Part shown: positions 2,243 to 59,787 of the stretch, piece by piece
How positions within the stretch are numbered: the first letter of the stretch is position 1
Layout: every line of letters begins with the position of its first letter
DNA from: a virus
Length of the DNA: 64,000 nucleotides
Direction: 5' to 3' (one strand)
IMG/VR virus record: IMGVR_UViG_3300006735_000013
Location: 95,579-159,578 of that record
Program-made: the position numbers and the translations under genes
The notes under the pieces: generated by a model
Seen by the model: the letters and a program-made list of their open reading frames with translations, nothing else
What the model was told of the DNA's origin: nothing
Databases searched by the model: none

Positions 2243-2251
2243 ATGAAGATT

Positions 2252-2368: not shown

Positions 2369-2381
2369 GGTTCATTTCTCC

Positions 2382-3106: not shown

Positions 3107-3109
3107 TTT

Positions 3110-3148
3110 CAGAAAAAAGAAAAGCCCCACCAAGTTAATGATGGGGCT
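3110..3148 (-). terminator. Rho-independent terminator after major capsid gene
   Basis: On the minus strand a stem of AGCCCCA paired with TGGGGCT, with a loop of about 12 bases, is followed by TTTCTTTTTT. It lies about 30 bases after the TAG of the major capsid gene. Confidence 0.8.
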
Positions 3149-3176
3149 GAATCTTTTTGTTATCGGACTTTAGCTA

Positions 3177-42024: not shown

Positions 42025-43871
42025 GGGTCTACTCTAAATTTGAACTTTTCCTGCTGCTCTGTATAATTAGAGCCGTCTTTTGAAACAAAAGATATTTCAT
42101 ATGCATTATTGGGCTCAAGTATGCTCATATCTAAATCAAAGTGAGAGCCACTAACATCATATGATAAAGAAGAATAACTAGGTACGCTTCCTGTTGAATA
42201 CGATATTACATCAAAATTATCTGAAACTTTAGTTATTTTGTAATAAAGATCCCTTATCGTGTTTACGGGCGCTGTGCTGCGGGCTTTCGTATATACAGTT
42301 GGTTGCCAGTTTTTGTTCCTAGTGTACACTCTAAGCGTTGCCTTCTCGCTCTGTAAGTAGGTATCCTTTAGATTGGTTATCGATAACTTGTAGCTGGGAG
42401 TTTCATAATGATTGTCTGGACTCTCAGTGTGGACTGTAAACCCCGAACCTGTTGCTAGCGTAGAATCCAGATGACTTGTTGAAGAGGACCATACATCGTA
42501 TAAGTAACTGGCTGTTCCAGCATAAGCAAATTGCGCCTTATATACCCCCTTGCTTTCGCGGCTGGCAGTTATAAACTGTAAGGGGGCATCTGATACACCT
42601 CCTGCGCTAGGTGAGAGTGATTCTGCTCTCAAGAAAGTGCTTCCCAATTCATCTTTGTGATAAAGACTAGCAACAATTGTTGTATTACTTCCTGTGGGTA
42701 TATCAGATAGCTGTCCCCTAACTCGATTATAAAAATAAATACTATTCAAGTTGTCAGCAGCAGGCGCCAAAGAACTAGACTTAAGTATATAGCCTCTGTC
42801 ATCTCTTATCGAACCATCCCACTGAGCTTCAATTTTAGGCTTTAGAAAGAATTCATGAGAACTTCTAGAATAAAACTTTTTAGTATAATAAGAGTGTTCG
42901 CGTGAGCCATCTTCATATGTGTGGTCAAGCTTTAGTAACACTCCGTAATTTGGCATTCCGGTGCCACCATCAAAGCTGTTGTAAGTTATTCTTGCTGGCG
43001 GAGCAGAAGTGGAAACAACCGTGTTTCCATGTAAACCAGCAACTGATTGGGTGAGAGACAAATATGCTCCTTCGAGCGTTGTCTGCAATGTACCTGAAAA
43101 ATCTCCAGATATTGAATCTTTTAGTGCACTTATTGTTCCCTCTTTTGAGCCGCTCAATTTTAAGAAAACTGATTGGCCCAAAGAATATCCCGAAGACGTT
43201 ATAAAGGTGTAGGTCACTTCTTCCCCTTCATGCGATCTTAGTTTGATTATATCATTTTCATTCAAATTACTTACTAGGTTTATGCTACCAGTAGCACGGA
43301 GGGCAGCATCATTATTATATTTTACCCACTCCTCAACTAAGCCTGTTATATCAATATTGACATCTTCGGTACCCTGTTTTAAAAATTGGTTATATTCAAG
43401 AGGTATCACACTTGAGGTAACAAAGTCGCTGCTTACAAAGTCCGAACCTGTACTGTGCCATGCAATTCCAGTAGAAGCTGAAAGCCAGTTGCTGGATTCA
43501 AGATCTAGATAGTTTTCCATGTCGAGGCCGTCACCTTCATTCCAAGATCTTGCCAAAAGGTGCACAGACAATTGGTAGTCTTCTGGTGTTGTCTGTCCGT
43601 GTGAAACGTTATGTACTCGAAGCTTATAGTTTACAGATCCTGATTGAGGCAGGACATCGATGGACCTATCTGTTGCTATCTCACTGACTGGAAACTGCAT
43701 CAGGACGCGGGTCTTTTCAACTGAGCTGCTGGCAGCTTGACCATATATTGAAAATATCTCTAAGATATCAGACGCGCCCATGTTGGCCTTTGTAGATCTG
43801 GCAGATAAATTCTCCCTATATGCAGTTGAGATTGTGTTATCTTTTTCTGAATTATATCTTTTAATACTCAT
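42021..43871 (-). CDS. Virion protein with DNRLRE-like N-terminal domain
   Basis: The start is chosen at ATG 43871 (616 aa), which overlaps the gp6 stop (TAATG), rather than a longer frame to 43919. The N-terminal 170 residues (L-E-I-F...R-V-L-M-Q-F-P-V-S-E-I, Y-K-L-R-V-H-N-V, L-S-V-H-L-L-A-R-S-W-N-E-G-D-G) resemble a DNRLRE-type beta sandwich seen in surface and fibre proteins. About residues 195-310 form a beta domain shared with the adjacent giant protein. The C-terminal part has repeated Ig-like strand patterns. It lies directly after gp6 and before the 3472-aa gene, so it may attach fibres to the baseplate. No enzyme motif is seen. Confidence 0.6.
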   Translation of the reverse strand: MSIKRYNSEKDNTISTAYRENLSARSTKANMGASDILEIFSIYGQAASSSVEKTRVLMQFPVSEIATDRSIDVLPQSGSVNYKLRVHNVSHGQTTPEDYQLSVHLLARSWNEGDGLDMENYLDLESSNWLSASTGIAWHSTGSDFVSSDFVTSSVIPLEYNQFLKQGTEDVNIDITGLVEEWVKYNNDAALRATGSINLVSNLNENDIIKLRSHEGEEVTYTFITSSGYSLGQSVFLKLSGSKEGTISALKDSISGDFSGTLQTTLEGAYLSLTQSVAGLHGNTVVSTSAPPARITYNSFDGGTGMPNYGVLLKLDHTYEDGSREHSYYTKKFYSRSSHEFFLKPKIEAQWDGSIRDDRGYILKSSSLAPAADNLNSIYFYNRVRGQLSDIPTGSNTTIVASLYHKDELGSTFLRAESLSPSAGGVSDAPLQFITASRESKGVYKAQFAYAGTASYLYDVWSSSTSHLDSTLATGSGFTVHTESPDNHYETPSYKLSITNLKDTYLQSEKATLRVYTRNKNWQPTVYTKARSTAPVNTIRDLYYKITKVSDNFDVISYSTGSVPSYSSLSYDVSGSHFDLDMSILEPNNAYEISFVSKDGSNYTEQQEKFKFRVDP

Positions 43872-45691
43872 TATGCTAAAATCGTTCCTTTGATATCGTC
43901 GATAAACTTTACTTCCCATATACTATTTTGCGGTATATAGATGTAGCTGTTGTCAGGTGCAGTGTTTTCTCTAATTTCATAAAAATAGTCAGTGTAATTA
44001 TTGCCGGTCAAAGAGGTAACCACGATTCCGTCTCTTGGGGATAGTCTGTCTACTTCAGGAATGTTTTGTACAATTCTCATTATCTCTGTTATATAAAGTG
44101 GTTCGCCAATTTCGGGTGGCACTGCTGAAAGTTCGTCAAATAATCTTTTCTTTATGTCTTCTATAGCCGTCTGTTGATTGACACCGGTCTGAAGACTGAG
44201 TCTGAACTCTATTCCAAGATTTATAATATTTGCATCAAATAGGTCAATACTGTCAGATATCATTCGTACAGAGTTTATCCATGTTTTTGTGTTTTGCTTT
44301 AGTAAAGATGAAGGTTTCTGCATCTTTCCGTCGGCGCCCTCGGCGATAAGGTAAGCGTTCAGATTCCTTCTAAGGTCGTTATCATCTCTAACTACTGACG
44401 CTCTTTTTATCGCCCCATATATTGCAGGCATACTATAGATAGCGGACACATAATCTTGTCGAGTGACCGCCCTCCCTTGAGCACCGAAGGTGCCTAAGTA
44501 CCTTCTTTTCAATTCCTCTGTATTGGGAATTGAAATATTCCCATTGATAGGTTCTTCGTTAGAGACCTGAACATTTTGTCTTATAAAATTGACTTTTGCT
44601 GAATCTAAATTCTGCTCATTCTTGAAAGACATGATAGGGTTCACAATCTGGTTAACTGTTCCGGCTGCAGCATTCGAATTTAAAGAAGTGTTACTCCTGT
44701 AGGTTATAGTCAAGGTTGTATTCTGTGGTGAGATCCCAAGACGATCAGAAGACGCCAACCTAGTTGGGTCAAGAGAAGGTGAGGAAATGTATGTTTTTCC
44801 TGATAACTTCACTGCCACTTTAGATGGGTCTGCAACTGAATTTGTCTTTAGGTCTGCATCTGAGCCGTGGCCGAATACGAGATAGTTCCTATTTAGACCC
44901 TTTTCTAAGACAAACCTTCTTGGTACTGGTTTTGCTTTTAATATTGAAGAGACCATGGGGTCTCTATTTTCAGGGTCTCGAATTGGGCGATAAATAACAT
45001 TTTGACTAAGATTATCAACTTGAAAGTATAAGTTACCTTCACTGTCTTCTACCTTTATCACTTCGGTCATAGTGGAGTCAGGTATTTCTATCTTTACAAA
45101 CCTTCGATGGGCCCCGACCTCAACAGTATGTGTACGCTCTTCGCCAGAAATAACAGGGATTCTTGCTTTTAGGATATAGTATTCTGGTCTGAATCCATCT
45201 GCTGTGAAATTATAGGCTGAGATTCTAGAATTGCTCTCATTTAGTGTTACATCATTTATCTGTGTGTACGTTGTTCCGCCCTGAGATCTATAAGTAGATC
45301 CTGCTTTTAGATTTATCTCATATGCAGTCTCTAGGCCAGGACCTATTGCGCTGGCCGGCTGAAGGACTGTGATGTCAACCTCTCCCACTCCGACCGGGTT
45401 TAGTTCCGGTGTTCCCCCATACGCCTGAATGTGTTGTATCAATATCTGAGGGTCTTTTGTAAAGTACGGTATTGCCTCATTGGCATTGTGATCCATATAA
45501 TAATGTAACTGATCTCCTATATAAGAGACCAAGTCTAACATCAGAGATCCAAATGATGACTTCTTGAAATCTTTGTAGGTGTCAGGATAGTATCTCTTTA
45601 CATTATCCATCAACTGTTCTCTTATTTCATTGAACGCAGTTTTTGTATAATCGACAGGTTGGACGTTTTTTGTCCTGTTGGTAGTAGTCAT
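43871..45691 (-). CDS. 6: Baseplate wedge protein, gp6/gpJ-type
   Basis: This 606-aa protein belongs to the T4 gp6 / P2 gpJ wedge family. The N-terminus shows the family pattern: F-N-E-I-R-E-Q-L...Y-P-D-T-Y-K-D-F-K-K-S-S-F-G-S-L-M-L-D-L-V-S-Y-I-G-D-Q-L-H-Y-Y-M-D...N-E-A. The C-terminal half includes N-T-E-E-L-K-R-R...G-R-A-V-T-R-Q-D-Y-V-S-A-I-Y (the T-x-x-D-Y signature) and a final helix/strand domain. gp6 forms the baseplate inner ring with gp25 and gp53 and couples baseplate opening to sheath contraction. It follows gp25 by 3 bases, the usual pair, with GGAGG before ATG 45691. Confidence 0.9.
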   Translation of the reverse strand: MTTTNRTKNVQPVDYTKTAFNEIREQLMDNVKRYYPDTYKDFKKSSFGSLMLDLVSYIGDQLHYYMDHNANEAIPYFTKDPQILIQHIQAYGGTPELNPVGVGEVDITVLQPASAIGPGLETAYEINLKAGSTYRSQGGTTYTQINDVTLNESNSRISAYNFTADGFRPEYYILKARIPVISGEERTHTVEVGAHRRFVKIEIPDSTMTEVIKVEDSEGNLYFQVDNLSQNVIYRPIRDPENRDPMVSSILKAKPVPRRFVLEKGLNRNYLVFGHGSDADLKTNSVADPSKVAVKLSGKTYISSPSLDPTRLASSDRLGISPQNTTLTITYRSNTSLNSNAAAGTVNQIVNPIMSFKNEQNLDSAKVNFIRQNVQVSNEEPINGNISIPNTEELKRRYLGTFGAQGRAVTRQDYVSAIYSMPAIYGAIKRASVVRDDNDLRRNLNAYLIAEGADGKMQKPSSLLKQNTKTWINSVRMISDSIDLFDANIINLGIEFRLSLQTGVNQQTAIEDIKKRLFDELSAVPPEIGEPLYITEIMRIVQNIPEVDRLSPRDGIVVTSLTGNNYTDYFYEIRENTAPDNSYIYIPQNSIWEVKFIDDIKGTILA

Positions 45692-45694: not shown

Positions 45695-46162
45695 TTATTC
45701 GAATCCTCCCATCTTTGCGATTTCACTATTAAGGTCGCCTATGTACACTTCACTTGGTTCAACTTTTGTCAGGTTTATCTCCAATGTGTCTGTTGCATTT
45801 AAGTTTCTTATGGTATATGATATCCTCAATACAGTTGATAGATTGTCTTGATCATTTTCAGTACTCACAAATTCTGCAGACCCTAGACTCACTATAGGTA
45901 AATACTTCTTTAGCTGCTCTGCTATTTTATATCGAATATTTGATAACTCTTCTGATCCATAAGTTTCAAACAAGTATGTTGGCAACCCGATTCCTAAGTC
46001 TGGTCTATTTGGCCACTCGCCCTGCACTGTTTTGAGCAAAAACACAAAATCTTGTTTTATCGATTCTTGCACATTAGCAACTGATGCGTAGGGCCCGAAA
46101 GTGTCATCAATTCGCAGCGGCCATTTAGGTTGCAGCTGATTTGGTACGTTGTATATCGCCAT
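45695..46162 (-). CDS. 25: Baseplate wedge protein, gp25-type
   Basis: A 155-aa gp25/GpW-like (lysozyme-like family name) wedge protein. It shows F-G-P-Y-A...V-Q-E-S-I-K-Q-D-F-V-F-L-L-K-T-V-Q-G-E-W then P-D-L-G-I-G-L-P-T-Y-L-F-E, matching the family's T-x-x-G-E and G-x-G-L-x-x-x-L-F-E motifs. In contractile tails gp25 initiates sheath polymerisation and sits with gp6 in the wedge. Size agrees with T4 gp25 (132 aa). GAGG precedes ATG 46162, and a short gap with an ACTATTTA element separates it from the giant gene upstream. Confidence 0.9.
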   Translation of the reverse strand: MAIYNVPNQLQPKWPLRIDDTFGPYASVANVQESIKQDFVFLLKTVQGEWPNRPDLGIGLPTYLFETYGSEELSNIRYKIAEQLKKYLPIVSLGSAEFVSTENDQDNLSTVLRISYTIRNLNATDTLEINLTKVEPSEVYIGDLNSEIAKMGGFE

Positions 46163-46216: not shown

Positions 46217-49200
46217 TTATTCTTCAGGGGTTGGCATGTCTCCAAATGGCTTAGGTTCCTCGTTGCTGTTGGGGCACTCTGGGGCATTTTGGATTTGCTC
46301 CTTTGAATATGGGGTCTCTCCGCAGCCGGAAAGCTCCCTCTGACGGATGTCTCCCGGCAATTCTTGGAAAGATAACGCCAAGGCTGTCAATGGGCTTAGC
46401 GGATGTCCATAGCGGCCGAAATTCCAAGGCTTTGCTTCTTCTGTTTCCCAGAGTGGTTCTTCGTCTTCCCTACAAGGTATATCAAAAACAAATGCGCCGT
46501 CAACAAGGGCAATGGGGCCCTTATACATATAACCTAAAAAGTGCTTCATTGTCCTCTTCATTGGTGTTGTGCTGGGGCCGTTGATCACGTCAAATAATTT
46601 ACCTATAGAATACGCCAGATCGCCGCCGAAAGCGGAAACAAGTGGTGCATATCTGCCCGTCTTGAGACCGTCTGGAATCTTGTCTAGTCCTGCGGTAAGC
46701 TGCTCCACCTCACCTTTATACTTCTTATTCCACTCTGGACTCCACTGCACTGCTGACCATTTCAACTTGTCAATATCGCAATTATCCCAGTGTAATTTCA
46801 TCTCTTTATAAGCAGGATCTACTGCAGAGGCCATGCCTCTAAACAATATCGCTGGAAACAGCAATATCATTTCCAGTAGCCTATCCCAGAAGTCCTCAAT
46901 AATCTCGCCAAAAAGATTAGGAAAGTCGAAGCACTTCATCTCCGCGGCGTTGGATGTTGCATTATTTGTTGCAAAATTATATAAATCAGATTGACTCAGC
47001 GAATCTAAAATCTGCAAGCGCTCTGATGAATTCATTCCTGTAGCGGCCATTAAAAATGCCAGTGCGCGTTTGGGAGATTGCATAACTGTTCTCATATCTC
47101 CATAGCCTGCGAGCATAGAGGTAACAAACGCAGTGGAAACTGCCTGATACCTTTTTATTGGATATATATAATTGAATACCTGTTTAGAATCATTATTGTT
47201 TATAAGCTCCTGGGTCATCCAGTTTTTCCTTCTATTGAAATCAAACTCAAAAGTATTCCAATTTATACAAGTAAAATCACTAGACCCAAATTCACTAAGA
47301 GTCTCATCATAACTTGATACTGGGGATGTTAGATACCTTGACTTTTCTTCATCTCCCAGAAACATCAAGAAGCTTCTATATTCTTCAGAAATTTTCTGTA
47401 TTGGGCCGGATTGATTAACAAAGTTTCTGTATTGCTGCTCCGTCAAATCACCATCACCATCTTGACCTAAATAGGAGTTTGCCACAAGTCTAGATACTTG
47501 CTTCACTTCACTTCTACGATAAAGGCCGCTGAGGGTTTGACCATCAAAGCCAGAGAGATCAAGTAAGGCTGATCTTATAAAATTTTCGGATATACCCGAA
47601 TGCCTAGTAAACGCCGCTCTATATTGATCAGCGTGCCTTGTTATTATGGATTCCTGGCGCTGGCCTGGTCGAAGATATGAAAGTTTTTGATGCTCTAGCA
47701 TTTCAGAATTTAGGTGAATCGCCGACATAACATTTCTATATACGTCTTCATAATATACCTCCTCTGTACCTTGTGATAAATTCACTCCCAACTGCCTTTG
47801 AGAGTAATTTGATAGAAAGCTGTTTCGATCTTGCTGTTCTAACACTAATTCGCTGAAAGTATAAAAGTCTAACTTTGAAAGAAACTTCGAAATATTACCG
47901 GAATCGATATCTTCAATATCTAAATCTGACCTCATTCTCTCAACTGTAGAGGCATCTGGTCTTAGTGAATTGTTGTATATAAAATCTATCCACTGCTCTA
48001 AACTATAAAGACCTTCGTCAGTGGTTGGGCGCTGCAAGGTTTTTGCAAAGTTTGGGCGGCCTGAAACTGCCAAAAGATACAATATCTCTGCAGAAGTATA
48101 TGCAGCTGAAGTCTCTAACACCATCTTCATGAAACTATGCAGATAATATAAGCGGTAGCTAGAGGACAAAAAGTGCTCATTTTGCATAGTATATTCGGAC
48201 TCTACGCAAAAAGATGTTGAGTATACTGACTTATAATAAAGCTTTGTGATTACATTATATACACTTTCAAATGCAGAGATCGCAAGATCTTTTGGTATAG
48301 CGCGAATCTGCTCTTGTGTCTGAGCATCTATGCTGCTTAATATAAAAGCGTCAGATATTGCATAAGGAGCTCTATCTTCGTCTCCCGGGGTGAGTGGGAT
48401 AGTTGATTGAACGAGTCTTCCAGCATTAAATTCAGACGCAAATTTTGTAAAATCAAACACCGAGAGCGGGTTACCGCGGTCGAGTGATGTATTACTTACA
48501 GTTACATAAGATACTAAACTTGAAATAAACAGACTAAGGTCTTCTAAAGATATACGGCCGTCATTTATATATAAAGATGATCCCGCCTCTTTTGTGAAAA
48601 AAGTTTCCATCTTGTTGTAGTTGACATTATTGTAGCCCGGGCCGTCAATCTGAATTCCTACCGGGCGATCAGTTGTTATGAAGTCAGGATCATATTGATC
48701 TCCCAAGATGTGTAAATATTTTACTACTCCCCTGTAGTCGTCATCTCTAGCTACATCATCGCGTGGTATGGCAATATCTTCAACGTCCCTTTCACCTGGG
48801 AATATAGTGCAGAAACCAGGCTGCTTCCATGGTGATTCATAATAATAATAACTGGGTTCGAGTATTCCGTCACGGTCAATTTCTTCCTGAGTTTTACTTA
48901 CTCGGGTGCGGAAGCCATCTAGCTCATTGCCGCCAGGCCACTGGGCGTTGTCAGATACTCTCCAGTATAGTTCCGCCCTTTTTTGAGGCAGCGGATTCAT
49001 TGTCCAAATTGTATACGGTGTCAATTTTCTGTATTCTTGGCGGCGATGATGGCGGCCTCCGTTGCGGGCGATGTTTGAACCCCACTGAAACTTATCCGAA
49101 TAACTTAAGCATAATGGTATATTTTGCTGCCATGGAGATCGGTTATAGTCTGTCAAATTTGCTCTCATGTAGGAATTTGTTCCCAGTGGGCCGCCCAATA

Positions 49201-52200
49201 TATCACGAATTGCTGAGGCAGGCTGAACATCATTTCCAGTAGTATATTTCCTAGAAGTATGGCCCCATAAAGAATCTGATCTTCTACTGTTAGTATAATC
49301 CTCTATAACATTGCCCAAAGAAAAAGACATTTTGTGAAAGCCGGCAAAACTAAAAACATCAACGTCTTCATAAAAAAAGTGAAAAGATCTTAGATGGTTT
49401 CTCTTGATATACTTGCCATTTTCTTCGTAGCGCGTGAAATTTGCAACTGTTGGCACACGAGAATCAATTCCTGATGGATAGAATAAGACACCAGTACCAT
49501 CCATATTTTCTTGTGGTGTCCTATACTGTGATTTTGCCAACAGTTTGCCGCGGTCGGCGAAGAGTCTATCTAATTCGTCGTCACTATTGAAGGTCGGCGA
49601 GCTTGTTTCATTCTCGAATATTCTTGAATAAATTCGCTCGATTGAACAAAATTGATTGTTTATATCTGGATTTGCTGGATTTGCAACATAGATCTCTTCA
49701 TTAGCGCGATGATCTCTTATAAAGTCTGTTGTTAGATCTGGAAATTCTTCATATCCTGGATACTCTCTAATATTTTCAATTTTTAGTGCTAAGTTTCTTG
49801 CTTCGTCAAAGGGCATATTGTCGGCAAACCTTTGTGCGATATCTTCTGATACATCCCTGTGTGTTTGATCGACAAATGCTACATATTCAGACATGATCCC
49901 GTTTAAGGCAGCATTTAGCTTTTCAGTGTTTTCTTGCACCGCGTGAGCAAAGCCCAGGCCGTCGGCGTTGGGGGCGCGGTCGGGTGTCAGGATATCGTGT
50001 ATATTTCTTATGTATTCAGGCGGAACGATTCGGCAATAAGCTTCTTTTGGAGTGACACTACCCTCATCAAACACCTGAGTTAACAACACTCTAATCGGAA
50101 TTTTATAAAAATTAGCTGGTAGTAAGTTATCTTGTTCAACTGACAGACCTTCTTCTGTTCTTTCTGGAGTCTGGTGGAGCAAGATTTTAGATTTTTCTCT
50201 TGCTGCAGAAAAATCTATAGGCGCCACTGCAAGGTCTCGGCCGTAAAACTTAGATCTTGTTACATCTGTAGTATTTATTGTTGGCGCTGTCCAATAAGAA
50301 GTATTGCTGTAATTAGTCTGTCTATCTATTCCCATTGGGCGGGCCAGAAATGGTGCTGCACGGCCGTCGATGTCCCTGCTATAGAGAATCCTGCCGGTCT
50401 GTGTTAGTTTGACATCGCCAGTGCCATATTCTAGCCAGGCGTTGTTCCGCGTGGCAAAAGCCACGCCGTCATTGATAGGGGAGGCGGCCTCGCCATATAG
50501 ACGTTGAATTTGATTCATTGCTGAAGAGAAACTGCCCATCAATTCTTCTGATGGGGAAAAATTCATAACAGAAGGGTCTTGCGTTTCCCCTATAGAAAAT
50601 GATCCGTTCATCCCTATTATCAGAGAAGCTGTATCTGCAAAAGTAAATACCGTTTCTTTCCATACCTCTTCTGTGTATAATGGGCCCTCATCGTCAGAGT
50701 ATATTTGTTTTATACGATCGTATATTTGTTCTGTCCTTATTTTTCCAATTGGATTAGTATAAACTCTTTGTGGTGCAAAATTATCATTAGGATCTCTGAC
50801 ATGTTCTAAAGAATCACCGGGACCAGATTCATAATCCCCGTCTAAGTCACGGCCGAAAGTGTGACCCCTGAGTAGTGAGATATCGTGCACAGAACCTACA
50901 GATGCTCTAATAAGCGTATTTGCTGTACTGTCTTTAAACGTCTCTACGTTTACAGAATTATCAAACTTAGAACCTCTATACCTTCTGTAGTCATGGTTAT
51001 TATCTCTTGAAACCAGATCTATGAATCCGGGATTGGCCTCTAATAGCTCCATATCACCATCATTGATATCATTTACTAAATGAAGATATTCCTCGCCATT
51101 CGCTGGTAATATGTAATACTTAGTATCTCTTTGCGTACGCTCAACATATGGGAAAAAATCAACGAATGGCTGTGTTACATCGCGATTTCTCACTGCGTCT
51201 CCTTCGATATAGTCAGACGACACTAGGCCGTCGATGATCAAACCACCATCGGGAGAAGAGCTGACATCATAAGCATGTAGGCCGTTGTAATAATAGGCGT
51301 GTTCATCCCTGATTGTATCGATTGGTTCAGTTACGAAATCTTTTGTAAAGTTTATAATCCTTCTTTCTTTTCTTATGAATCTCGTGGGTGTCCTTCGAAT
51401 AGAATCTGGAAAGCTATTAGCTGCAGGATAGGGAGTGTATCTTCTATCATCAGTATCCCTACCTTCTTCGTATACCATGCAGCCTAGCAAGTGGCTGATG
51501 AGTTTTTCCATATCTCCGCCGCCTGTTATTGAACGAATTCCATCAATGAAGTCCCTTACATGGTATACTTCAAAAAGGGCCGAAACGTCGTCTGTGCTTT
51601 CCGCTGTTGTTCCGCTTGATGAACCCGGTAAATCGGCCTGAAACAGGTCATAGTCGTTGAGATCTGGAAATCTAAGGTTTGTAAATCTGGAAAAAGAATC
51701 CCTTAAATTCAACCTCTCTATATTCCTGTTTCTTCTTTCTACTCTTGTCAGATGCTCATCTGGTGAGTTAGCAATATCGGCGTCAATAAAATTGAGTATT
51801 ATTTCCCTACTTGGCAAAATTATTGATTCCATTCTGGCTAGGGGGCCCCTCACTTCTAGAAGGTGCTCAATATGAAAAAAGTTCTTTTTTCCCTCTAAGA
51901 ATTCATTATTAGCACGTTCGCTATAAAGTGGATGTTGCCAGTAAAAATCTTGCGGCACTTGATCTAAAACAATGTCTCTGTCTCGCACTCTGTTACCCTC
52001 AATGTCTACCACTTCGTTGGAGACTGGGTCTACTCTGTATCTTATTTCGTTTAGGTTACCCGGAGAAACTATGCGAGATACATTTGTTTGCGGAACAAAG
52101 TTCATTATAAACCAATTATAATAATCGACTCCTCTTTGATTATCGAAAATTCTCTTGCAAGAATCTTGTACCTGGTACACCTGTGTCATAACCAAGTTTC

Positions 52201-55200
52201 TCAATGCTGATTTTGATTGCTGTATGCCTGTCACTCTCTCTGCTATGTCTTTCCATTTCCCATCTAGTATTTGTGAGCTTTCTAATTCTTGAAAGATAAA
52301 CTCATATACAAAATCTTGAAAGAATGGCTCGTCGGCAATGGATTCTATGTCCCAAACAGAATATGCTATAGATCCCTTGAGCAACAATTCCACCAAACAT
52401 ACACGAACAAAACCAACAAGAGCAACATTTTGAATTGCTTTTTCGATTGGGCCCAAATCATCAATATCTAAGTTTTCTGGATTGTTTTCCGGTTTTGACA
52501 TCTCTTTTCTTATTTGGTCATTCAACTCATCTGTCACCATTTTTTCGAATGATAGAATACCAAATTGGGATACATTGTATTTATTCTTGTAGCAGCCCTC
52601 TTCTTGTGAAAAATATAACTCTCCGTTCACTCTTCTTTTTAGTTCTGGGTAGTAATTTTCTTCATCAAACATTCTAGAATTCTCTAGAGAAAAGAATATT
52701 TGCTCAAAAATACCTTCTGAAAACTGTAATGTTCCTTCCCTATAAAAATATCTTTTTATAAAGCTTTCTGGGTCTGAATTCCAGTTATTTATACCTAAGA
52801 GGTCTTCTCTTTCTCCGTCTTCTAAGTTTTCTAAATCTTGCCTTGTGTCATATATAGAATTTGCAGAATCTTTGATACTATTCCAAAACTTTCTGGTAAA
52901 AAGTTCTCGCCTAGTATAAGACCCTGGAGATATATCTGAGATCGCCTCTTCGTATATTTGTCTTTCTTCTTCTTGTTCCGGAGTTATACTCGATTCATCT
53001 AGGCCCGGGCCAGGAATTGTATCGCAATATTCGAAAGTTTTTGGGCCGCGGAAAAGAGGACTATCCTGTATTCTAATGGTATACGGGTCGAAGGCGCTAG
53101 TATTTGATTCTTCTGGACTCTTGAATTCCAGCATTTCGACATTCGATGAAATTGGTCCTAAATTAGCTGATAACTTTAGAGTTTGAGTCTCTCTCCCCGT
53201 GCTCGCCTCTTCTATCAGCTGCCTTGATGATCTTGTTCTTTCGATTTCGTTTTCATAAGATAGTGTCATTACTTGTCTTATGATATCTAAATAGCCATCG
53301 TAGTTTATTGTAGTGGATATACTTTCAAGATGTGTTTGCAATTCTCCCTGAAGTTCGCCCAACCTATCTGATATCAGTTCCAGTAGTATATTTTCGCGCG
53401 CGTTTGGAATATCACTTTGTTTTGCTATCTTATATCTGTACACAAATCTAAAGTCTTTTAGTGGTGAATTATCTCCGTCTATTTCTATGTTTCTGTTTCT
53501 TCTTGAATAGTCTTGTATATTGTTAGTATTGAATCTGTATGAGTCTTGACTGACGCCGATTGGCTTTAAGGCCAAGGCAAATATGTTTCCATAGCTGCCT
53601 CTATTATCGTATTCTATTTTCTCACCATTATTTGGATAGTCTTGTGGAATAGAGCCATTTGGCACAAAAGCAAATCCGGAGTATGCTTGCATGACTTTTA
53701 TTCCAGTATCTCTGTACTCAGCGGTCTCGTAGACTTGATACAATACATGAAGTTGTTCGGTTAGATTTCTTACATTGTTGTCCCTGTCAGCTAACATCGA
53801 AAATAATTTAAGATTTTCTGCAATGGTTTCCACAATTATTGACGCTTCTTCATTGTATTCTCTATCGGAAGGTATAGGTAACCTTGAGCTTTTCAAAAAC
53901 AATGCTGGCGAGTATGCTGTTAGAGAGCTGATATAGCCCTTTTTAGCTGTGTCAAAAATGTCTTTTGCAGAGTTTGACATCTGTTTCATCAAGACAGGCG
54001 GAAGGCCATTCATTATAGAATCTGGATTTGAAAAATTCACAATATCTGGCATTGCTGCAGACAAACCACCACGCATCAAAGCTTCGATGGCTGTGGCTTC
54101 AGACATCATGTTTTTGTTTGCCATGTCAAGAGCATGCTCTATTTCCTCATCTGTTGCGTTATTAGCTAACATCTGCCGTCTTATTTGGTCTAAATAACTT
54201 GATGTATCTTCGCAACTTGAAGAGCCAATAACTCTAGTTACTTGAGACAACTGCTGACACATTGACTCTGGAATATAAAAAGAGATTGTTTCAAAAAAAC
54301 TTCTTAGTGTTTCTTCTGCGTTTATTTCTCTTATTCCCGCTTTCTTTGCCAGTTTCAAAAGAAGGTTCATGGTTGGGTCATCTATGGGGCCGCCTTGCAG
54401 AATTCTGCACAATTCCTCACCTGTAAGTATTTTTCCCATATCATCTATGAATTCAGGTGCTTTTTCAATACTCTCTTCGCTTAGAAATAGATCAGTCAAA
54501 GCGTTCGTAAATGCCTTTTGCATTAATGGTGATGCGGCTGCAGCCTGGCCGAATAATTCGTCCCTTAAATGCTCTCCACAAATTGGAACTTTCAAAAATT
54601 GAAGCAACATCTTTACAAAAGAACATAATATTCTATTTAATATCTGTTCCCATTGGTCCATCAAGAAACCTATCAAACCCTTATACCACCCAAAAATAGA
54701 AAAATCCGGAGTGCCTGGTAATGAGAATTTTGGTATGTCGAATCTTACTGCTGGTATTTTTGTGCACTTTAGGTAGTCACACAATAATTTTCCTGGAGAA
54801 AAGTGATACACAAAGTCCATCAATAATTCTCTATAACTGGTGCACTCAGGGCCGAAGAGATCCAGGGCTTCATCTGTTCCAAAATCAGCTTCCAAGAACT
54901 GAGATGTGAAGTTTTCCGTTTGACCCTTCCACCAACCCTTTGCCGTATCGGTGGCGCCATTTACCGTTGCTTCATAATATCTATAGATAGGGTTGTGTTT
55001 TTCGGGCTCTATCGCCTTGATTTTTGGTGTATATTTTATTATAAATGCCAAACCTTTCTTACCGAACCCTAAGCCGCTAGCGCAAACAGAAAGACCATCC
55101 AAAGCCCAATCTGTCGCATGCGAAGCAGCACTACCGAGGGGCTTGCCTAAAGTGTCTTGAAAGCTTTCTAAAAATCTTTGATCTGAGCCTCTCATGGCTT

Positions 55201-57691
55201 CTGATTGTGCTAGGTATGCTAATGTTCTTGGCCTCTTGAGGGCGACACTATTTTCTAGAATACTCTTAGCTTTTTGACTTTTTATTAACTTTCCTGCCGC
55301 AATGATTTTGTTTATTGTCAATCCAGTGCCATTTTTATGTGCTTCAAAATTGATCTGTATAGAGTCTGCTCCCCCAAAAACACCTGTTATAGAAGTGCTG
55401 GCTTCTGTCGCCGAAGTGTCCCCAAAAAGGCCATTCGCGTAGTCGGCGCCTTTCGATTCTCCAAAATTATAATTCGGTATTTGCGCTACTATTACTTTTT
55501 TCAAATCCTCGACCGCGGTCTTCAAGTGGTCTACTTCTGCTTGACCAGCAAAGGCCGGCTTAAATCTAATTTTTGATGTATCACAATTTTCAGAAGCCTC
55601 TTTCAAGTTTCGGGCTGCAGCCAGAACATCTTCTTTGAAAAATTTAAAATCTTTGTTCACCTGCATCGATGAAAGACTTGGGTTTTCTATTCCAGTTGCA
55701 TCGTTTGCTGAGAAAGGAATGTTGTGACCACCTGAAGTACCAAACCTAGCTGCGCCTTCTGCAAGGGTTGCAAGGAACCCTTGTTGCCCTGTGTTGAACC
55801 TCAATTGGGTGTTACCTATGACTCCAAGCTCTACAGTTGCCTCTGATGCTTTTTGTTCGTTACTGTAATTTTCTATGGCCGCCTCTCGAAAAGATCTAAC
55901 AATTTCTCTTCTATTTCTTGAGGCTAAAGCCATATATTCATTATATCTATTTTCTAGTTCCGAATCTGACAGGGGGCCATTCTCGCAATCTGTCCCAAGC
56001 TCGCTGTCGAGGTTTGAGGTTTCATGACTAGAGTTTAGTGCACTTTCTGCTGGCGTGCCGGCCGGCTCCACTGATTCTTCGAATTCAACGCCCGGGCTTA
56101 TAAGGCGGAGTTTTTCTCTGTTAATAGTAAACCTCGCCCTATAAACATCACCTGGTCTGAGTGAAGGAGTGACGAATTCTACAAACTTAATAATTGGATC
56201 TGACTGCTGGTCTATCAGTTGATTTGAGGTGTTTTCCATATATTCTATGCGATTATAGATCTCCGCGGATCCTAGTGGGTCTAGGGGACCATAATCCTCA
56301 CCATAAACAGTGAGATCCAAATTGTTGTTTTCAGCAATTGTTTTAGTTGTCAATACAAATACGGATGATTCGCCATAAGTCTGATCATGGCTTGGACTAC
56401 GTGAAACTAGGTCTGTTTTATATGTCTGATTATATCTTTGATCGTTCGAATCTAAGAACCACAAATCCGGTTTATTATAGAATCTAAGTATATCCGTGAG
56501 GGCCCTGTCCTCGATTTCCCTAATGGCAGATATGTAATTATCGTCTGTCTGCTTAGGGGGCAAATTAACCGGACTTATTGTATAATCTGTTGGCATAAAG
56601 TAACCAATTCTCTTGGTGTCGACAACAAAAGGATCAGGATCGATGAATGGGTCAGGTTCGACAGATCTTCTAGAAAAGCTTGAAAAGTCTTGCTCTGACA
56701 ACATTGCTACGTCTGCTGGGCGGCCCTCCTGTTTTGGTATTGCGCGTAGGGCAGAATACAACAAGCTTTCTGATTCCTTGGACACCAATTGGTATTTTAC
56801 ACCAACAAACAAGGTAGGTTTAGTTTCGTATCCTGGTACCTCTTGTTTATTGGGAGATAATATATCTTCTATGTTTGATACTTGATTTTGATAATTTTTG
56901 TAATATTGGTCTCCAGGTATGGCTCTTCCGGTTGGAATATAAGCTAGAAGACTTCTCTTTGGCTCTAGAATCTCTTCTGAATCTTCTGGTTTTTGGATAA
57001 AATTTCCACTTAAAAAAGAGTCGTAGACGCCCAACAACACTAAATCGTATGCTCCATCTTGCTCTGCCGTGGCGCGACGATCATGGTAGTAAGTAGAGTT
57101 TCCTGCCTTTGTTCTGGGTTTCCAGCCGTGCAATACTGCTAGGGTTGCCTCGCCCAACATACCAAATTCTTTAGCCCAAAGACCTTGAAGTATTTCTGTC
57201 TGAGTTGATACAAAGCTATTATTAGTATAATCTGCCGCATATCCCCCTTCCACATTCGATATTGTTGGTGAGAAAAAACCGCCCCCTTCTAGTAGATATG
57301 GATCAGTAGTTCTGTTTAGCTTTTGAGCTAATCCATATTGCGGGTCGATTGGAGTCTGCAGTGATATTTTTGAAAATAGGTAACTTATTATATAAAATTG
57401 ATTATCTTGCTGATACTTGATCAAATACCTTTGCATGTTTCGGTCAAAAGTGGCAGCTTCCAGGTCCGAAATTTTTTCTGCAGATGTACAATCAAACCAG
57501 CCCGAGGGGGATTCAAGCGAGGGATTGTTATCACCTTCATGTATGAGTGTAGAATAATCTACGATTGCTCCAAGGGCTTTCTTGACGACAAGTATGTCTT
57601 TCCCTATTTGGCCAAGCTTTCTTGGCCCAAAATCTACCTGATTATCTTTTTCATTATCTATTAACTGGATCTTGTAAGTTCTAATCTTCAC
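46217..57691 (-). CDS. Giant virion protein (3824 aa), baseplate/tail region
   Basis: At 11.5 kb this is the largest gene here. I recognise no family. The N-terminus (K-I-R-T-Y-K-I-Q-L-I-D...V-K-K-A-L-G-A-I) is alpha/beta. Most of the protein is polar and Asn/Asp/Arg/Tyr-rich. Two hydrophobic stretches stand out, near residue 1000 (G-W-Y-K-G-L-I-G-F-L-M...L-L-Q-F-L-K-V-P-I) and near 3600 (M-I-L-L-F-P-A-I-L-F-R-G-M). They could be amphipathic or membrane-inserting helices. The C-terminus is Pro/Glu/Cys-rich. It sits between the spike-like gene and gp25, the place where T4 keeps wedge and hub genes, so a baseplate-linked role is likely. A TATAAATA octamer lies 27 bases before ATG 57691. Confidence 0.6.
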   Translation of the reverse strand: MKIRTYKIQLIDNEKDNQVDFGPRKLGQIGKDILVVKKALGAIVDYSTLIHEGDNNPSLESPSGWFDCTSAEKISDLEAATFDRNMQRYLIKYQQDNQFYIISYLFSKISLQTPIDPQYGLAQKLNRTTDPYLLEGGGFFSPTISNVEGGYAADYTNNSFVSTQTEILQGLWAKEFGMLGEATLAVLHGWKPRTKAGNSTYYHDRRATAEQDGAYDLVLLGVYDSFLSGNFIQKPEDSEEILEPKRSLLAYIPTGRAIPGDQYYKNYQNQVSNIEDILSPNKQEVPGYETKPTLFVGVKYQLVSKESESLLYSALRAIPKQEGRPADVAMLSEQDFSSFSRRSVEPDPFIDPDPFVVDTKRIGYFMPTDYTISPVNLPPKQTDDNYISAIREIEDRALTDILRFYNKPDLWFLDSNDQRYNQTYKTDLVSRSPSHDQTYGESSVFVLTTKTIAENNNLDLTVYGEDYGPLDPLGSAEIYNRIEYMENTSNQLIDQQSDPIIKFVEFVTPSLRPGDVYRARFTINREKLRLISPGVEFEESVEPAGTPAESALNSSHETSNLDSELGTDCENGPLSDSELENRYNEYMALASRNRREIVRSFREAAIENYSNEQKASEATVELGVIGNTQLRFNTGQQGFLATLAEGAARFGTSGGHNIPFSANDATGIENPSLSSMQVNKDFKFFKEDVLAAARNLKEASENCDTSKIRFKPAFAGQAEVDHLKTAVEDLKKVIVAQIPNYNFGESKGADYANGLFGDTSATEASTSITGVFGGADSIQINFEAHKNGTGLTINKIIAAGKLIKSQKAKSILENSVALKRPRTLAYLAQSEAMRGSDQRFLESFQDTLGKPLGSAASHATDWALDGLSVCASGLGFGKKGLAFIIKYTPKIKAIEPEKHNPIYRYYEATVNGATDTAKGWWKGQTENFTSQFLEADFGTDEALDLFGPECTSYRELLMDFVYHFSPGKLLCDYLKCTKIPAVRFDIPKFSLPGTPDFSIFGWYKGLIGFLMDQWEQILNRILCSFVKMLLQFLKVPICGEHLRDELFGQAAAASPLMQKAFTNALTDLFLSEESIEKAPEFIDDMGKILTGEELCRILQGGPIDDPTMNLLLKLAKKAGIREINAEETLRSFFETISFYIPESMCQQLSQVTRVIGSSSCEDTSSYLDQIRRQMLANNATDEEIEHALDMANKNMMSEATAIEALMRGGLSAAMPDIVNFSNPDSIMNGLPPVLMKQMSNSAKDIFDTAKKGYISSLTAYSPALFLKSSRLPIPSDREYNEEASIIVETIAENLKLFSMLADRDNNVRNLTEQLHVLYQVYETAEYRDTGIKVMQAYSGFAFVPNGSIPQDYPNNGEKIEYDNRGSYGNIFALALKPIGVSQDSYRFNTNNIQDYSRRNRNIEIDGDNSPLKDFRFVYRYKIAKQSDIPNARENILLELISDRLGELQGELQTHLESISTTINYDGYLDIIRQVMTLSYENEIERTRSSRQLIEEASTGRETQTLKLSANLGPISSNVEMLEFKSPEESNTSAFDPYTIRIQDSPLFRGPKTFEYCDTIPGPGLDESSITPEQEEERQIYEEAISDISPGSYTRRELFTRKFWNSIKDSANSIYDTRQDLENLEDGEREDLLGINNWNSDPESFIKRYFYREGTLQFSEGIFEQIFFSLENSRMFDEENYYPELKRRVNGELYFSQEEGCYKNKYNVSQFGILSFEKMVTDELNDQIRKEMSKPENNPENLDIDDLGPIEKAIQNVALVGFVRVCLVELLLKGSIAYSVWDIESIADEPFFQDFVYEFIFQELESSQILDGKWKDIAERVTGIQQSKSALRNLVMTQVYQVQDSCKRIFDNQRGVDYYNWFIMNFVPQTNVSRIVSPGNLNEIRYRVDPVSNEVVDIEGNRVRDRDIVLDQVPQDFYWQHPLYSERANNEFLEGKKNFFHIEHLLEVRGPLARMESIILPSREIILNFIDADIANSPDEHLTRVERRNRNIERLNLRDSFSRFTNLRFPDLNDYDLFQADLPGSSSGTTAESTDDVSALFEVYHVRDFIDGIRSITGGGDMEKLISHLLGCMVYEEGRDTDDRRYTPYPAANSFPDSIRRTPTRFIRKERRIINFTKDFVTEPIDTIRDEHAYYYNGLHAYDVSSSPDGGLIIDGLVSSDYIEGDAVRNRDVTQPFVDFFPYVERTQRDTKYYILPANGEEYLHLVNDINDGDMELLEANPGFIDLVSRDNNHDYRRYRGSKFDNSVNVETFKDSTANTLIRASVGSVHDISLLRGHTFGRDLDGDYESGPGDSLEHVRDPNDNFAPQRVYTNPIGKIRTEQIYDRIKQIYSDDEGPLYTEEVWKETVFTFADTASLIIGMNGSFSIGETQDPSVMNFSPSEELMGSFSSAMNQIQRLYGEAASPINDGVAFATRNNAWLEYGTGDVKLTQTGRILYSRDIDGRAAPFLARPMGIDRQTNYSNTSYWTAPTINTTDVTRSKFYGRDLAVAPIDFSAAREKSKILLHQTPERTEEGLSVEQDNLLPANFYKIPIRVLLTQVFDEGSVTPKEAYCRIVPPEYIRNIHDILTPDRAPNADGLGFAHAVQENTEKLNAALNGIMSEYVAFVDQTHRDVSEDIAQRFADNMPFDEARNLALKIENIREYPGYEEFPDLTTDFIRDHRANEEIYVANPANPDINNQFCSIERIYSRIFENETSSPTFNSDDELDRLFADRGKLLAKSQYRTPQENMDGTGVLFYPSGIDSRVPTVANFTRYEENGKYIKRNHLRSFHFFYEDVDVFSFAGFHKMSFSLGNVIEDYTNSRRSDSLWGHTSRKYTTGNDVQPASAIRDILGGPLGTNSYMRANLTDYNRSPWQQNIPLCLSYSDKFQWGSNIARNGGRHHRRQEYRKLTPYTIWTMNPLPQKRAELYWRVSDNAQWPGGNELDGFRTRVSKTQEEIDRDGILEPSYYYYESPWKQPGFCTIFPGERDVEDIAIPRDDVARDDDYRGVVKYLHILGDQYDPDFITTDRPVGIQIDGPGYNNVNYNKMETFFTKEAGSSLYINDGRISLEDLSLFISSLVSYVTVSNTSLDRGNPLSVFDFTKFASEFNAGRLVQSTIPLTPGDEDRAPYAISDAFILSSIDAQTQEQIRAIPKDLAISAFESVYNVITKLYYKSVYSTSFCVESEYTMQNEHFLSSSYRLYYLHSFMKMVLETSAAYTSAEILYLLAVSGRPNFAKTLQRPTTDEGLYSLEQWIDFIYNNSLRPDASTVERMRSDLDIEDIDSGNISKFLSKLDFYTFSELVLEQQDRNSFLSNYSQRQLGVNLSQGTEEVYYEDVYRNVMSAIHLNSEMLEHQKLSYLRPGQRQESIITRHADQYRAAFTRHSGISENFIRSALLDLSGFDGQTLSGLYRRSEVKQVSRLVANSYLGQDGDGDLTEQQYRNFVNQSGPIQKISEEYRSFLMFLGDEEKSRYLTSPVSSYDETLSEFGSSDFTCINWNTFEFDFNRRKNWMTQELINNNDSKQVFNYIYPIKRYQAVSTAFVTSMLAGYGDMRTVMQSPKRALAFLMAATGMNSSERLQILDSLSQSDLYNFATNNATSNAAEMKCFDFPNLFGEIIEDFWDRLLEMILLFPAILFRGMASAVDPAYKEMKLHWDNCDIDKLKWSAVQWSPEWNKKYKGEVEQLTAGLDKIPDGLKTGRYAPLVSAFGGDLAYSIGKLFDVINGPSTTPMKRTMKHFLGYMYKGPIALVDGAFVFDIPCREDEEPLWETEEAKPWNFGRYGHPLSPLTALALSFQELPGDIRQRELSGCGETPYSKEQIQNAPECPNSNEEPKPFGDMPTPEE

Positions 57692-57695: not shown

Positions 57696-59147
57696 CTAAT
57701 TCACCGTATTATGTTTACTATTTATATAGATTTCACTACTTGGGTCTAAGTAACTAGAGTTGATATTGAAATTATTTAGCTCCTGTTTTACAGAATCAAA
57801 TCTTGTCTTAACGAGAGTTTGTATTTGCGTCACTAGCTCCGCGACCTCTCTAAATGGATTGCCTGCTGTTATACCACCAGGTATGGGCATGAATTCAAAC
57901 GATTTAGCCACATGACTATTTAATTTAGATTGAAATGTCACATATGCATCGAGGGACTGGTTTAGGTCACTTATTCTTTTCATTATTGACTTTAGGCACC
58001 TTTCTAAATTGTCTCCCAAAGGGATGGGCTGTTGATATAGCCTGTTGCCTTCTCTATCTATTCCGTTTTGCGCAATCAAGTGAATTCCATGGTTTCGCTT
58101 TATTGAGTTTCCTTGAGAATTGTGCTGCTCAAAGGGGCCACCAGTAACTATCTTTATATCCTGTCTTGCATGCAATCTTACTTTATCAGCTTTCAGTATT
58201 ATTCCACTAGTCGGCGCGACCTTTGGAGATGGTCGCCTAGATGAAGTTAGAGCTTTTGAGATCTTAAAGTTTTCATCAACTGCGGTCATTTGACTTACAT
58301 AAATGCGCGCAGCGTCCATGACCATCCCCGGATGAGAGCCACCTTCCAACGGATAATCAGCTATCTCTGGTGGGTAACTAGTATTGAAACTTGGGCCCAA
58401 GACTATACTGTCACCAGAAATTGATTCCTCCAAAGGGAATGGCGCCATTCTCCCGGCGACAATATCGATTGCACCTGCACCCATATGATCCGAAAATCCT
58501 GAGTTGTAGTTTCTCTCTAGGATGCTTTTTGTGTATACTTGGCTTTGTTGCGGCGCGTGGTCTCGACCAAGCATAATCATTGTATTGTTCATGCCCCTTA
58601 TAATATTGTCTCCTGGTCGGACGAAAGGTTCTGGGTTTGGCTCTTCTAATTCTTCCTCTCCTACGCCATCTATTTCGTCCCCTAGGCCAAACCATGTAGA
58701 GGACCACGGAACATGATTGCGAGGGCGCCCTTTGACCATATGACTTTTTGTTTCTTCTTCTTCTGAAGTTTGTTTTATATTTTTCTCTTCTTCTTCTGAC
58801 AGCGCTTTTGGGTCCACCCTCACTTGAGCTGAAAGGTTCGATAGTCCCTCCGTTGTTGTTCTATTTTCTCCCGAAATGTTACTATTGTAATCATAGCTAC
58901 TATCTTCCTTTGTGGGGATTCCAGCCTGTCGATCTAGGGCCCTCTTGGACGTCTGGCCTGTTTTGTTTGCTGCGGCTTTATAATACCGGGTGCGCGCTCC
59001 GGATTCGGCTGCAGAAGGGTCTGCAGCAGAAAATTGCTCTGTTATTTTCTCTCCATCAATCTCAACTGTGTAAGTTGAGACATACCTTCCGTCAGGTTGG
59101 CGGACAGTTGAATATCGTGGTGGTCTTGTCACTACTCCTTTAGGCAT
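57696..59147 (-). CDS. Putative baseplate spike/hub-associated protein
   Basis: I use ATG 59147 (483 aa), which follows AGGAG; the longer frame would start from a TTG at 59174. The N-terminal 150 residues are polar. Then come M-I-M-L-G-R-D-H-A-P, S-D-H-M-G-A-G-A-I-D-I-V-A-G-R-M-A-P-F-P (about 205-240) and S-G-I-I-L-K-A-D-K-V-R-L-H-A-R-Q-D-I-K-I-V-T-G-G (about 320-345). The last stretch has the regular hydrophobic alternation of gp5/VgrG-type spike beta-helices. The C-terminal 100 residues are a coiled coil. Similar proteins occur beside baseplate genes of marine T4-like phages in my recollection. Spike or hub membership is inferred, not proven. Confidence 0.5.
   Translation of the reverse strand: MPKGVVTRPPRYSTVRQPDGRYVSTYTVEIDGEKITEQFSAADPSAAESGARTRYYKAAANKTGQTSKRALDRQAGIPTKEDSSYDYNSNISGENRTTTEGLSNLSAQVRVDPKALSEEEEKNIKQTSEEEETKSHMVKGRPRNHVPWSSTWFGLGDEIDGVGEEELEEPNPEPFVRPGDNIIRGMNNTMIMLGRDHAPQQSQVYTKSILERNYNSGFSDHMGAGAIDIVAGRMAPFPLEESISGDSIVLGPSFNTSYPPEIADYPLEGGSHPGMVMDAARIYVSQMTAVDENFKISKALTSSRRPSPKVAPTSGIILKADKVRLHARQDIKIVTGGPFEQHNSQGNSIKRNHGIHLIAQNGIDREGNRLYQQPIPLGDNLERCLKSIMKRISDLNQSLDAYVTFQSKLNSHVAKSFEFMPIPGGITAGNPFREVAELVTQIQTLVKTRFDSVKQELNNFNINSSYLDPSSEIYINSKHNTVN
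57719..57726 (-). promoter_or_regulatory. T4-type late promoter octamer
   Basis: Exact TATAAATA on the coding strand, 27 bases upstream of ATG 57691 of the 3824-aa gene and inside the last codons of the preceding gene. This is the T4 gp55-dependent late promoter consensus, in the right orientation and distance. AT-rich coding DNA also produces this octamer by chance (for example 28282-28289), so support is moderate. Confidence 0.45.
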
Positions 59148-59160
59148 TTTATATACTCTC

Positions 59161-59787
59161 CTACCTCTTGTCAACTGATGTTATCAGTCCATATGAAAAA
59201 TCATAATTATATGGAAATTTAACTTTTATTGAACTGGCCAGGGTTGGCTCAGTTGTGTCAGACCCTTCAGACTGGATATAATAGGCTTTTGGGAATCTAG
59301 ATATTTGTTTGATTATTTTGTCAAGTTTTGCATCTTGCTCATCATTAGCCTGTTTCTTAAATTGATCAGCAACAGCAGATAACCTAGTGGTGGCAAGTGC
59401 TCGATTTTTATTGATGTCACTCATCAACTTGAAATAGTCATCACTATCTTCAGGCTGAGGTAAACAGGAGCAAATTTCTGGAACGTAGATTATTGCTTCT
59501 ATTATCTTTGTCTTTTTTGGCTGCGGGGCTTTTGAAGCTTTCTTTTTTTTCCAGCCCATGCAAAATTCGACAAAAACGTTGTTGTATTTTTTTTCAAATT
59601 CTTCATAGGTTATCATTGTTTTGTAAAGTATTATTCCGCGGAAGTCCGTTGTTTGATATGGTGAATCTGGCGCCCGATAGCTTGCCAGCATAGCATCTAC
59701 ATTTTCACTCTTGTTGCCCGTCGCGGGCTTGGGGTCTGGCTTTTTTTCCTGCGGCTTAGGCTTGAGGAGGTTATCAAACGTCTTCAT
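59161..59787 (-). CDS. Hypothetical protein in baseplate-side cluster
   Basis: A 208-aa protein with a disordered Lys/Pro-rich start (1-25). A domain with G-I-I-L-Y-K-T-M-I-T-Y-E-E-F-E-K-K-Y and V-F-V-E-F-C-M-G-W-K-K-K-K follows, then I-I-Y-V-P-E-I-C-S-C-L-P-Q-P. The last 80 residues contain a long helix followed by K-V-K-F-P-Y-N-Y-D-F-S-Y-G. It overlaps the 99-aa gene by 14 bases and precedes the spike-like gene. It could be an assembly or hub component; no family is recognised. Confidence 0.55.
   Translation of the reverse strand: MKTFDNLLKPKPQEKKPDPKPATGNKSENVDAMLASYRAPDSPYQTTDFRGIILYKTMITYEEFEKKYNNVFVEFCMGWKKKKASKAPQPKKTKIIEAIIYVPEICSCLPQPEDSDDYFKLMSDINKNRALATTRLSAVADQFKKQANDEQDAKLDKIIKQISRFPKAYYIQSEGSDTTEPTLASSIKVKFPYNYDFSYGLITSVDKR

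What the first reader, a model, noticed from the sequence alone, without database searches (positions are those of the whole stretch)
46217..57691. Exceptionally long 3824-residue virion gene of unknown family
An 11.5-kb uninterrupted gene between spike-like and gp25 genes takes about 18 percent of the window. It is not obviously repetitive and has two hydrophobic stretches near residues 1000 and 3600. In T4 this position holds several separate wedge/hub genes, so it may be a fusion of several baseplate functions or a very long baseplate-tethered fibre.
Basis: partly seen in the sequence, partly recalled or inferred. Interest (0 to 1): 0.6.

Follow-up and report, generated by a model that had tools for sequence, protein, structure and literature searches.

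The report
Giant conserved phage baseplate protein family
A single 3824-residue gene of an uncultivated, probably marine, T4-like virus belongs to a previously unnamed family of giant, cysteine-conserved proteins (2659-4693 residues) that always sit between the tail-spike gene and baseplate gene gp25, so it is real, probably part of the injection machine, and resembles no protein or structure searched here except for weak hits to unnamed viral models.

Summary
The ORF is real: window 46217-57691, minus strand, GTG start, 3824 aa, no stops. It is not a one-off: 18 further complete single-ORF relatives (2659-4693 aa) were found in IMG/VR contigs, always after a spike-like gene and before gp25. 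No member matches Pfam or PHROGs; the tested ones match no NCBIfam model, PDB chain or cultured phage. Seventeen of 28 cysteines are conserved in at least 17 of 18 members; C950 and C1023 vanish together in two non-sister lineages, predicting a bonded or metal-sharing pair. AlphaFold models show helix-rich globular domains, not fibre repeats, and match no solved fold (N-module model weak). gp25, gp6, a gp53-like gene and a tape-measure candidate are separate genes, so 'fusion of T4 genes' and 'tape measure' are unsupported. Best reading: a new giant baseplate family, two conserved modules anchoring it near the spike and inner ring, with an exchangeable arm. Virion membership and function are inferred. 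Precedent for giant baseplate genes: cyanophage S-SM2 gp7, 4156 aa.

The parts
46217..57691 (-). Giant gene, 3824 aa, 434.7 kDa, pI 4.8 (residue r starts at 57691-3(r-1))
   Evidence: 18 other complete homologous ORFs
52082..57691 (-). Conserved N-module, residues 1-~1870, shared by all 18 members compared; contains conserved C68, C569, C950/C1023, C971, C976, C1038, C1095, C1145, C1160, C1556, C1700, C1765
   Evidence: conservation profile and Cys columns; block alignments
54458..54874 (-). Cys-rich hydrophobic hairpin region, residues ~940-1078: LLCDYLKC, Pro-rich turn, long helix; C950 and C1023 co-lost in L021 and L022
52379..52435 (-).
   Evidence: conserved in the family
47402..52081 (-). 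Variable middle, residues ~1871-3430; 1551 aa here counted from 1880 to 3430, 153-185 aa in L020, L022, L019; 2295 aa in L026
46220..47401 (-). Conserved C-module, residues 3431-3824 (FRGxAxxxDPAYKEMxxHxxNC ... GRYGHPLSPLTALAL)
57696..59174 (-). Spike-like gene, 492 aa, immediately upstream; 322-514 aa in relatives; LysM at the N-terminus in L108
   Evidence: no library hit in the window copy
59161..59787 (-). 208-aa gene preceding the spike-like gene, conserved in position (168-268 aa); function unknown
60101..60838 (-). Late sigma factor-like gene; homologous to the sigma genes of immuto, Mel-JY01 and LR756508, marks the same operon
   Evidence: phrog_234 E 8.6e-6; hhalign 98.6-99.5%
45695..46162 (-). 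gp25 baseplate wedge gene, 155 aa
   Evidence: PF04965, phrog_261/43
43871..45691 (-). gp6-like baseplate wedge gene, 606 aa
   Evidence: phrog_10646 E 1e-7; tblastn to immuto 'baseplate wedge protein' E 3e-50

Best explanation
It is the window's member of a new family of giant, single-chain baseplate proteins of uncultivated, probably marine, T4-like myoviruses. Shown: one ORF; fixed slot spike-giant-gp25; two conserved modules flanking a variable middle; strikingly conserved cysteines; no detectable relation to known families. Inferred, in order: (1) it is a late virion protein of the baseplate; (2) the N- and C-modules pack into a compact anchor at the hub/inner-ring interface, next to the spike and gp25 whose genes flank it, locked by disulfides or metal held by the conserved cysteines; (3) the middle is looped out of this anchor as an arm or rim that varies between phages and carries peripheral or host-facing functions; (4) it does by one chain, in another way, what T4 does with a set of peripheral wedge proteins, as a non-homologous replacement rather than a fusion of them.
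For: Fixed slot and single ORF in 19 complete members including the window's. N- and C-modules shared by all 18 members compared while the middle shrinks to 153-185 aa in three. The region joining the end of the N-module, a short middle and the C-module in relative L076 (897 aa) folds with mean pLDDT 77.9 and pTM 0.68, consistent with parts of the two conserved modules forming one body with the middle as an insertion. 17 of 28 Cys conserved in at least 17 of 18 members against 4.0% of all residues (hypergeometric p about 1e-17); neighbouring gp6 and spike have no conserved Cys. C950 and C1023 both lost in L021 and L022, which are not sisters on the tree. Same operon (sigma upstream, gp25-gp6 downstream) in immuto and Mel-JY01. 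T4-type portal and prohead protease in the same genome. A giant gene beside gp25-gp6 has a precedent: S-SM2 gp7, 4156 aa.
Against: No virion proteomics. No homolog of known function, so the baseplate role rests on neighbours alone. The N-module model is weak (pLDDT 62, pTM 0.38; residues 896-1047 below 50), so the anchor is only partly modelled. Conserved cysteines may simply be buried. Hydrophobic conserved stretches could mean membrane contact rather than packing.
Confidence: 0.55

Rival explanations
1. Fusion of T4 wedge/hub genes (gp7, gp10, gp53, gp27): the giant chain contains the T4 peripheral wedge domains joined end to end.
For: Size (434.7 kDa) is in the range of several T4 proteins together; the operon position is right; the gp7 slot of S-SM2 is itself a giant gene.
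Against: gp53-like, gp25 and gp6 are separate genes. No block matches S-SM2 gp6, gp7, gp8 or VrlC, or immuto/Mel genes, by HMM or hhalign. No PDB fold match. Another giant gene (3472 aa, 31606-42024) occupies the post-gp6 region where gp7-type genes lie.
Confidence: 0.12
2. Membrane-active tip protein: conserved hydrophobic, proline-broken helices (~960-1045, 1753-1771, 3600-3625) are released with the spike and insert in the host inner membrane to guide DNA.
For: Three conserved hydrophobic stretches lie in the most conserved blocks; the gene follows the spike gene directly; immuto's gene in the same slot (gp115) also reads as long helices, a hydrophobic stretch and a Pro-rich turn (by eye).
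Against: No sequence similarity to immuto gp115. Hydrophobicity is moderate (peak 1.91) with charged residues inside; size and variable middle do not suit an ejected pore.
Confidence: 0.15
3. Very long baseplate-tethered fibre or receptor-binding arm over its whole length.
For: The middle region evolves fast and changes length, as receptor-binding parts do.
Against: No repeats; models are helix-rich and globular, without beta-structural arrays; N- and C-modules are the conserved parts. A fibre-like role remains possible for the unmodelled middle only.
Confidence: 0.1
4. Tape measure protein setting the tail length.
For: Very long tail-module gene with hydrophobic stretches.
Against: Lies after the spike, not between tube/chaperone and hub; a 530-aa gene rich in Ala, Lys and Gly and free of Cys and Trp lies directly behind tube and gp26-like chaperone genes (L010:3674-5266). 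Conserved Cys, Pro and Trp and compact modelled domains are not tape-measure-like.
Confidence: 0.03

Closest known systems
Synechococcus phage S-SM2 gp7 (4156 aa) and VrlC (2519 aa), Kyanoviridae
   Same: Giant single baseplate/virion genes next to gp25-gp6 in a T4-like cyanophage
   Different: S-SM2 gp7 lies after gp6, not before gp25; no sequence similarity in any block
Flavobacterium phage immuto gp115 (371 aa) + gp114 (139 aa); Microcystis phage Mel-JY01 chitinase-like (343 aa) + 176 aa
   Same: Same operon slot: sigma - ... - spike - X - gp25 - gp6, with homologous sigma and gp6
   Different: X is small and unrelated in sequence to the giant
T4 baseplate wedge proteins gp7/gp8/gp10/gp11/gp53
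   Same: Expected place at the periphery of a gp25-gp6 inner ring; gp10 Cys555 is proposed to bond to one of the gp7 cysteines (PMC3004832)
   Different: No sequence or fold match; T4 uses separate chains
BFVD models A0A1B1IUZ9 (1491 aa), A0A516MAR9, A0A516M7H3 (viral, no names at hand)
   Same: Foldseek match to residues 1-1200, best E 6.3e-5, probability 1.00, suggesting shorter distant relatives
   Different: TM-score about 0.1, with a weak query model; identity of the proteins not known here; the weaker two are not significant

Membership tests
T4 gp7/gp10/gp53 wedge proteins | Sequence similarity to the family (Pfam, PHROGs, PDB chains) | tested here: not met
   whole members; three conserved regions against PDB; 95, 125
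T4 gp7/gp10/gp53 wedge proteins | Fold similarity to solved baseplate proteins | tested here: inconclusive
   No PDB match for either model; the N-module model is weak and the middle was not modelled
Fusion of baseplate functions | The fused functions should be missing elsewhere in the genome | tested here: not met
   gp25, gp6, gp53-like are separate genes; gp7, gp10 and gp27 could not be located either way
Tape measure protein | Encoded between tube/chaperone genes and hub; coil-like composition | tested here: not met
   Position after the spike; separate 530-aa candidate behind tube and gp26-like gene
Tail fibre / spike of repeats | Repeats or beta-structural arrays | tested here: not met
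   No internal similarity; helix-rich models; the middle 1871-3430 was not modelled
Peptidoglycan-binding domain at N-terminus (PF01471) | HMM match in residues 1-110 | tested here: not met
   Pattern looked similar by eye; no match in the A9 members or in the giant gene of the 8 records searched
Giant single-chain baseplate genes (kind, as S-SM2 gp7) | One intact ORF above 2500 aa in the gp25-gp6 neighbourhood | tested here: met
   19 complete members, 2659-4693 aa
Virion structural protein | Present in purified particles | not testable with these tools
   No proteomic data; host unknown

The most novel reading that the evidence does not exclude
A structurally new class of phage tail component: a chain of roughly 300-530 kDa whose conserved halves close into one disulfide- or metal-stapled anchor at the spike/gp25 interface, with an interchangeable 150-2300-residue arm inserted between them, replacing the T4 peripheral wedge set in a group of marine phages.
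Probability: 0.3. Interest if true: 0.65.

Novelty: new variant of a known kind. Interest (0 to 1): 0.45.

Why it matters
Contractile tails are thought to share a small conserved inner baseplate with variable outer parts. This family shows a lineage of uncultivated viruses that spends several percent of its genome (7.2% here) on one chain at that interface, with a conserved core, a variable insert and a cysteine pattern not seen in the neighbouring baseplate genes. It gives a searchable family where libraries now have none, and concrete predictions (bonded pair C950-C1023, insert looped out of the anchor) that one virion preparation could test.

Tried and rejected
PG_binding_1 at the N-terminus: looked right by eye, no HMM support. 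Late promoter TATAAATA just upstream of the GTG: present here, not in relatives, 9 in window against 4.5 expected; rejected. Homology to immuto/Mel genes in the same slot: none. Homology to S-SM2 gp6/gp7/gp8/VrlC: none. One 16-bit HMM hit of the C-module in LR756508 (L088:6450-6758) has only a 54-residue alignment and lies far from the baseplate operon; taken as chance. Cultured phages by tblastn with six queries: nothing above noise. Bacterial/archaeal genomes: none with the one profile tried. Literature searches gave T4 and A-1(L) baseplate context only; no paper on this family was found.

Full report
OBSERVATION. The frame 46217-57691 on the minus strand is open for 3824 codons from GTG to stop, 17.9% of the window. 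The window is the last 64 kb of a 159,578-base IMG/VR virus record. The start is right: the first residues VKIRTYKIQL align with the ATG starts of relatives, and the gene starts four bases after the stop of the spike-like gene. The predicted chain is 434.7 kDa, pI 4.8.

THE FAMILY. Pfam and PHROGs have no model for it, NCBIfam none for the two members tested, PDB sequences none for the three conserved regions searched, and cultured phages give no tblastn match above noise with this protein, its parts or distant relatives. IMG/VR contigs, however, hold relatives. Eighteen other complete members were read, each one intact ORF: 2659, 2861, 2990, 3064, 3117, 3167, 3195, 3320, 3368, 3408, 3606, 3844, 3903, 3980, 3992, 4299, 4403 and 4693 aa. 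Pairwise identity among the ten first aligned is 25-47%. Reference bacterial and archaeal genomes gave none with the one profile tried.

THE SLOT. In every complete member the gene before it is a spike-like gene of 322-514 aa and the gene after it is gp25-sized, followed by gp6 wherever the locus extends that far. Further upstream lie a 168-268-aa gene, a gene of about 100 aa and a late-sigma-like gene. The spike-like genes share a C-terminal tail (ending NTVN or similar in most) that abuts the giant's start; in L108 the spike-like gene begins with LysM. The records with a significant gp6 match are Flavobacterium phage immuto, Microcystis phage Mel-JY01, the uncultured LR756508 and, over a short stretch, Sinorhizobium phage Phosso. 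Immuto and Mel-JY01 keep the same operon order, with homologous sigma genes (hhalign 98.6-99.5%), but the giant's slot holds two small genes: 371+139 aa in immuto, 343+176 aa in Mel-JY01. Those genes show no sequence relation to the giant. The giant is therefore a lineage-specific occupant of a slot between spike and gp25.

ANATOMY. A conservation profile over 18 members shows residues 1-~1870 and ~3430-3824 shared by all. The region between is alignable only among the closer members; it counts 1551 aa here (1880-3430) but 153, 167 and 185 aa in L020, L022 and L019 and 2295 aa in L026. A second insertion site lies near 1320-1440, where some members with a short middle (L019, L060, L076, L077) carry several hundred extra residues. 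The size of the gene is thus a conserved core of about 2250 residues plus exchangeable inserts.

CYSTEINES. Of 28 cysteines, 17 are conserved in at least 17 of 18 members, 60.7% against 4.0% for all residues, 14.3% for Trp and 10.3% for Pro (hypergeometric p about 1e-17; this ignores relatedness and serves only as a measure of contrast). As controls, gp6 of this phage has no cysteine and the spike one, not conserved. C950 and C1023 are present in 16 of 18 and missing in the same two, L021 and L022; on a core-alignment tree these are not sisters, so two joint losses are implied. That is the signature of a bonded or metal-sharing pair. The other pairings could not be assigned.

STRUCTURE PREDICTION. 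Residues 1-1200 with 19 sequences gave mean pLDDT 62.3, pTM 0.38; much of 20-540, 675-830 and 1055-1140 is at 70-90, while most of 896-1052 is below 50. The L076 unit equivalent to window residues 1440-3795 with its short middle (897 aa, 28 rows) gave pLDDT 77.9 and pTM 0.68: helix bundles with a few sheets, one fairly confident body containing parts of both conserved modules. This suggests, without proving it, that the long middle of the window's protein is inserted in a compact unit. Neither model matches a solved structure. The N-module has one significant match among predicted viral structures, A0A1B1IUZ9 (1491 aa, E 6.3e-5, probability 1.00, low TM-score), unnamed in the tables at hand.

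WHAT IT IS NOT. Not a set of T4 wedge genes joined, as far as testable: gp25, gp6 and a gp53-like gene are separate, and no block relates to S-SM2 gp6/gp7/gp8/VrlC. Not a tape measure: a 530-aa candidate of fitting composition and position is elsewhere, and the giant lies after the spike. Not a repeat fibre. The virus is T4-like at the head (portal PF07230, prohead protease PF03420).

HOW IT PROBABLY WORKS. Shown: slot, single ORF, modules, cysteines. Inferred: late baseplate protein; the two conserved modules form the anchor near spike and gp25; the middle is looped out as a variable arm; conserved cysteines staple the anchor after release into the oxidising medium, or bind metal. T4 offers a parallel for covalent stapling in the baseplate: gp10 Cys555 may bond to one of eight gp7 cysteines (PMC3004832). 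Giant baseplate chains are not unheard of: S-SM2 gp7 is 4156 aa. Hence 'new variant of a known kind' rather than categorically new.

LIMITS.

Noticed in passing
window 31606-42024 (-): A second giant gene, 3472 aa, two genes after gp6, without Pfam or NCBIfam match; the position resembles that of the 4156-aa gp7 of cyanophage S-SM2, but no similarity was found by phmmer.
   Followed up: partly
L006:508-815 (record G000:C1:508-815, outside the window): The phage genome carries a tmRNA gene (tag ANDDVEIFEDYALAA) besides four tRNA genes (Pro, Gly, Lys, Arg).
   Followed up: no
L008:13499-15064, L007:14352-14777, L008:12641-12934 (same record): Phage-encoded GroEL-type chaperonin (PF00118, E 8.5e-61), Hsp20 (E 6e-11) and glutaredoxin (E 3e-7); possibly relevant to folding and thiol state of very large Cys-conserved proteins. 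A GroES-like reading at L009:9770-10096 has no Pfam match.
   Followed up: partly
L086:18021-19136 (Flavobacterium phage immuto gp115): Annotated 'DNA repair ATPase RecN' although it lies between spike-like and gp25 genes and has no Pfam match at E 0.001; probably a misannotated baseplate protein.
   Followed up: partly
window 57719-57726 (-): Exact T4-type late promoter octamer TATAAATA about 28 bases before the giant's start, not conserved in relatives (9 in the window, 4.5 expected).
   Followed up: yes
L009:1625-5059: The phage encodes a bacterial-type DNA polymerase III alpha subunit (PF07733, E 1e-50), unusual for a T4-like virus.
   Followed up: no
G000:C1:20388-20516 (-): PG_binding_1 match (26 bits with its neighbours) in another long open frame of the record (1175 residues), a possible cell-wall-binding virion protein.
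   Followed up: no
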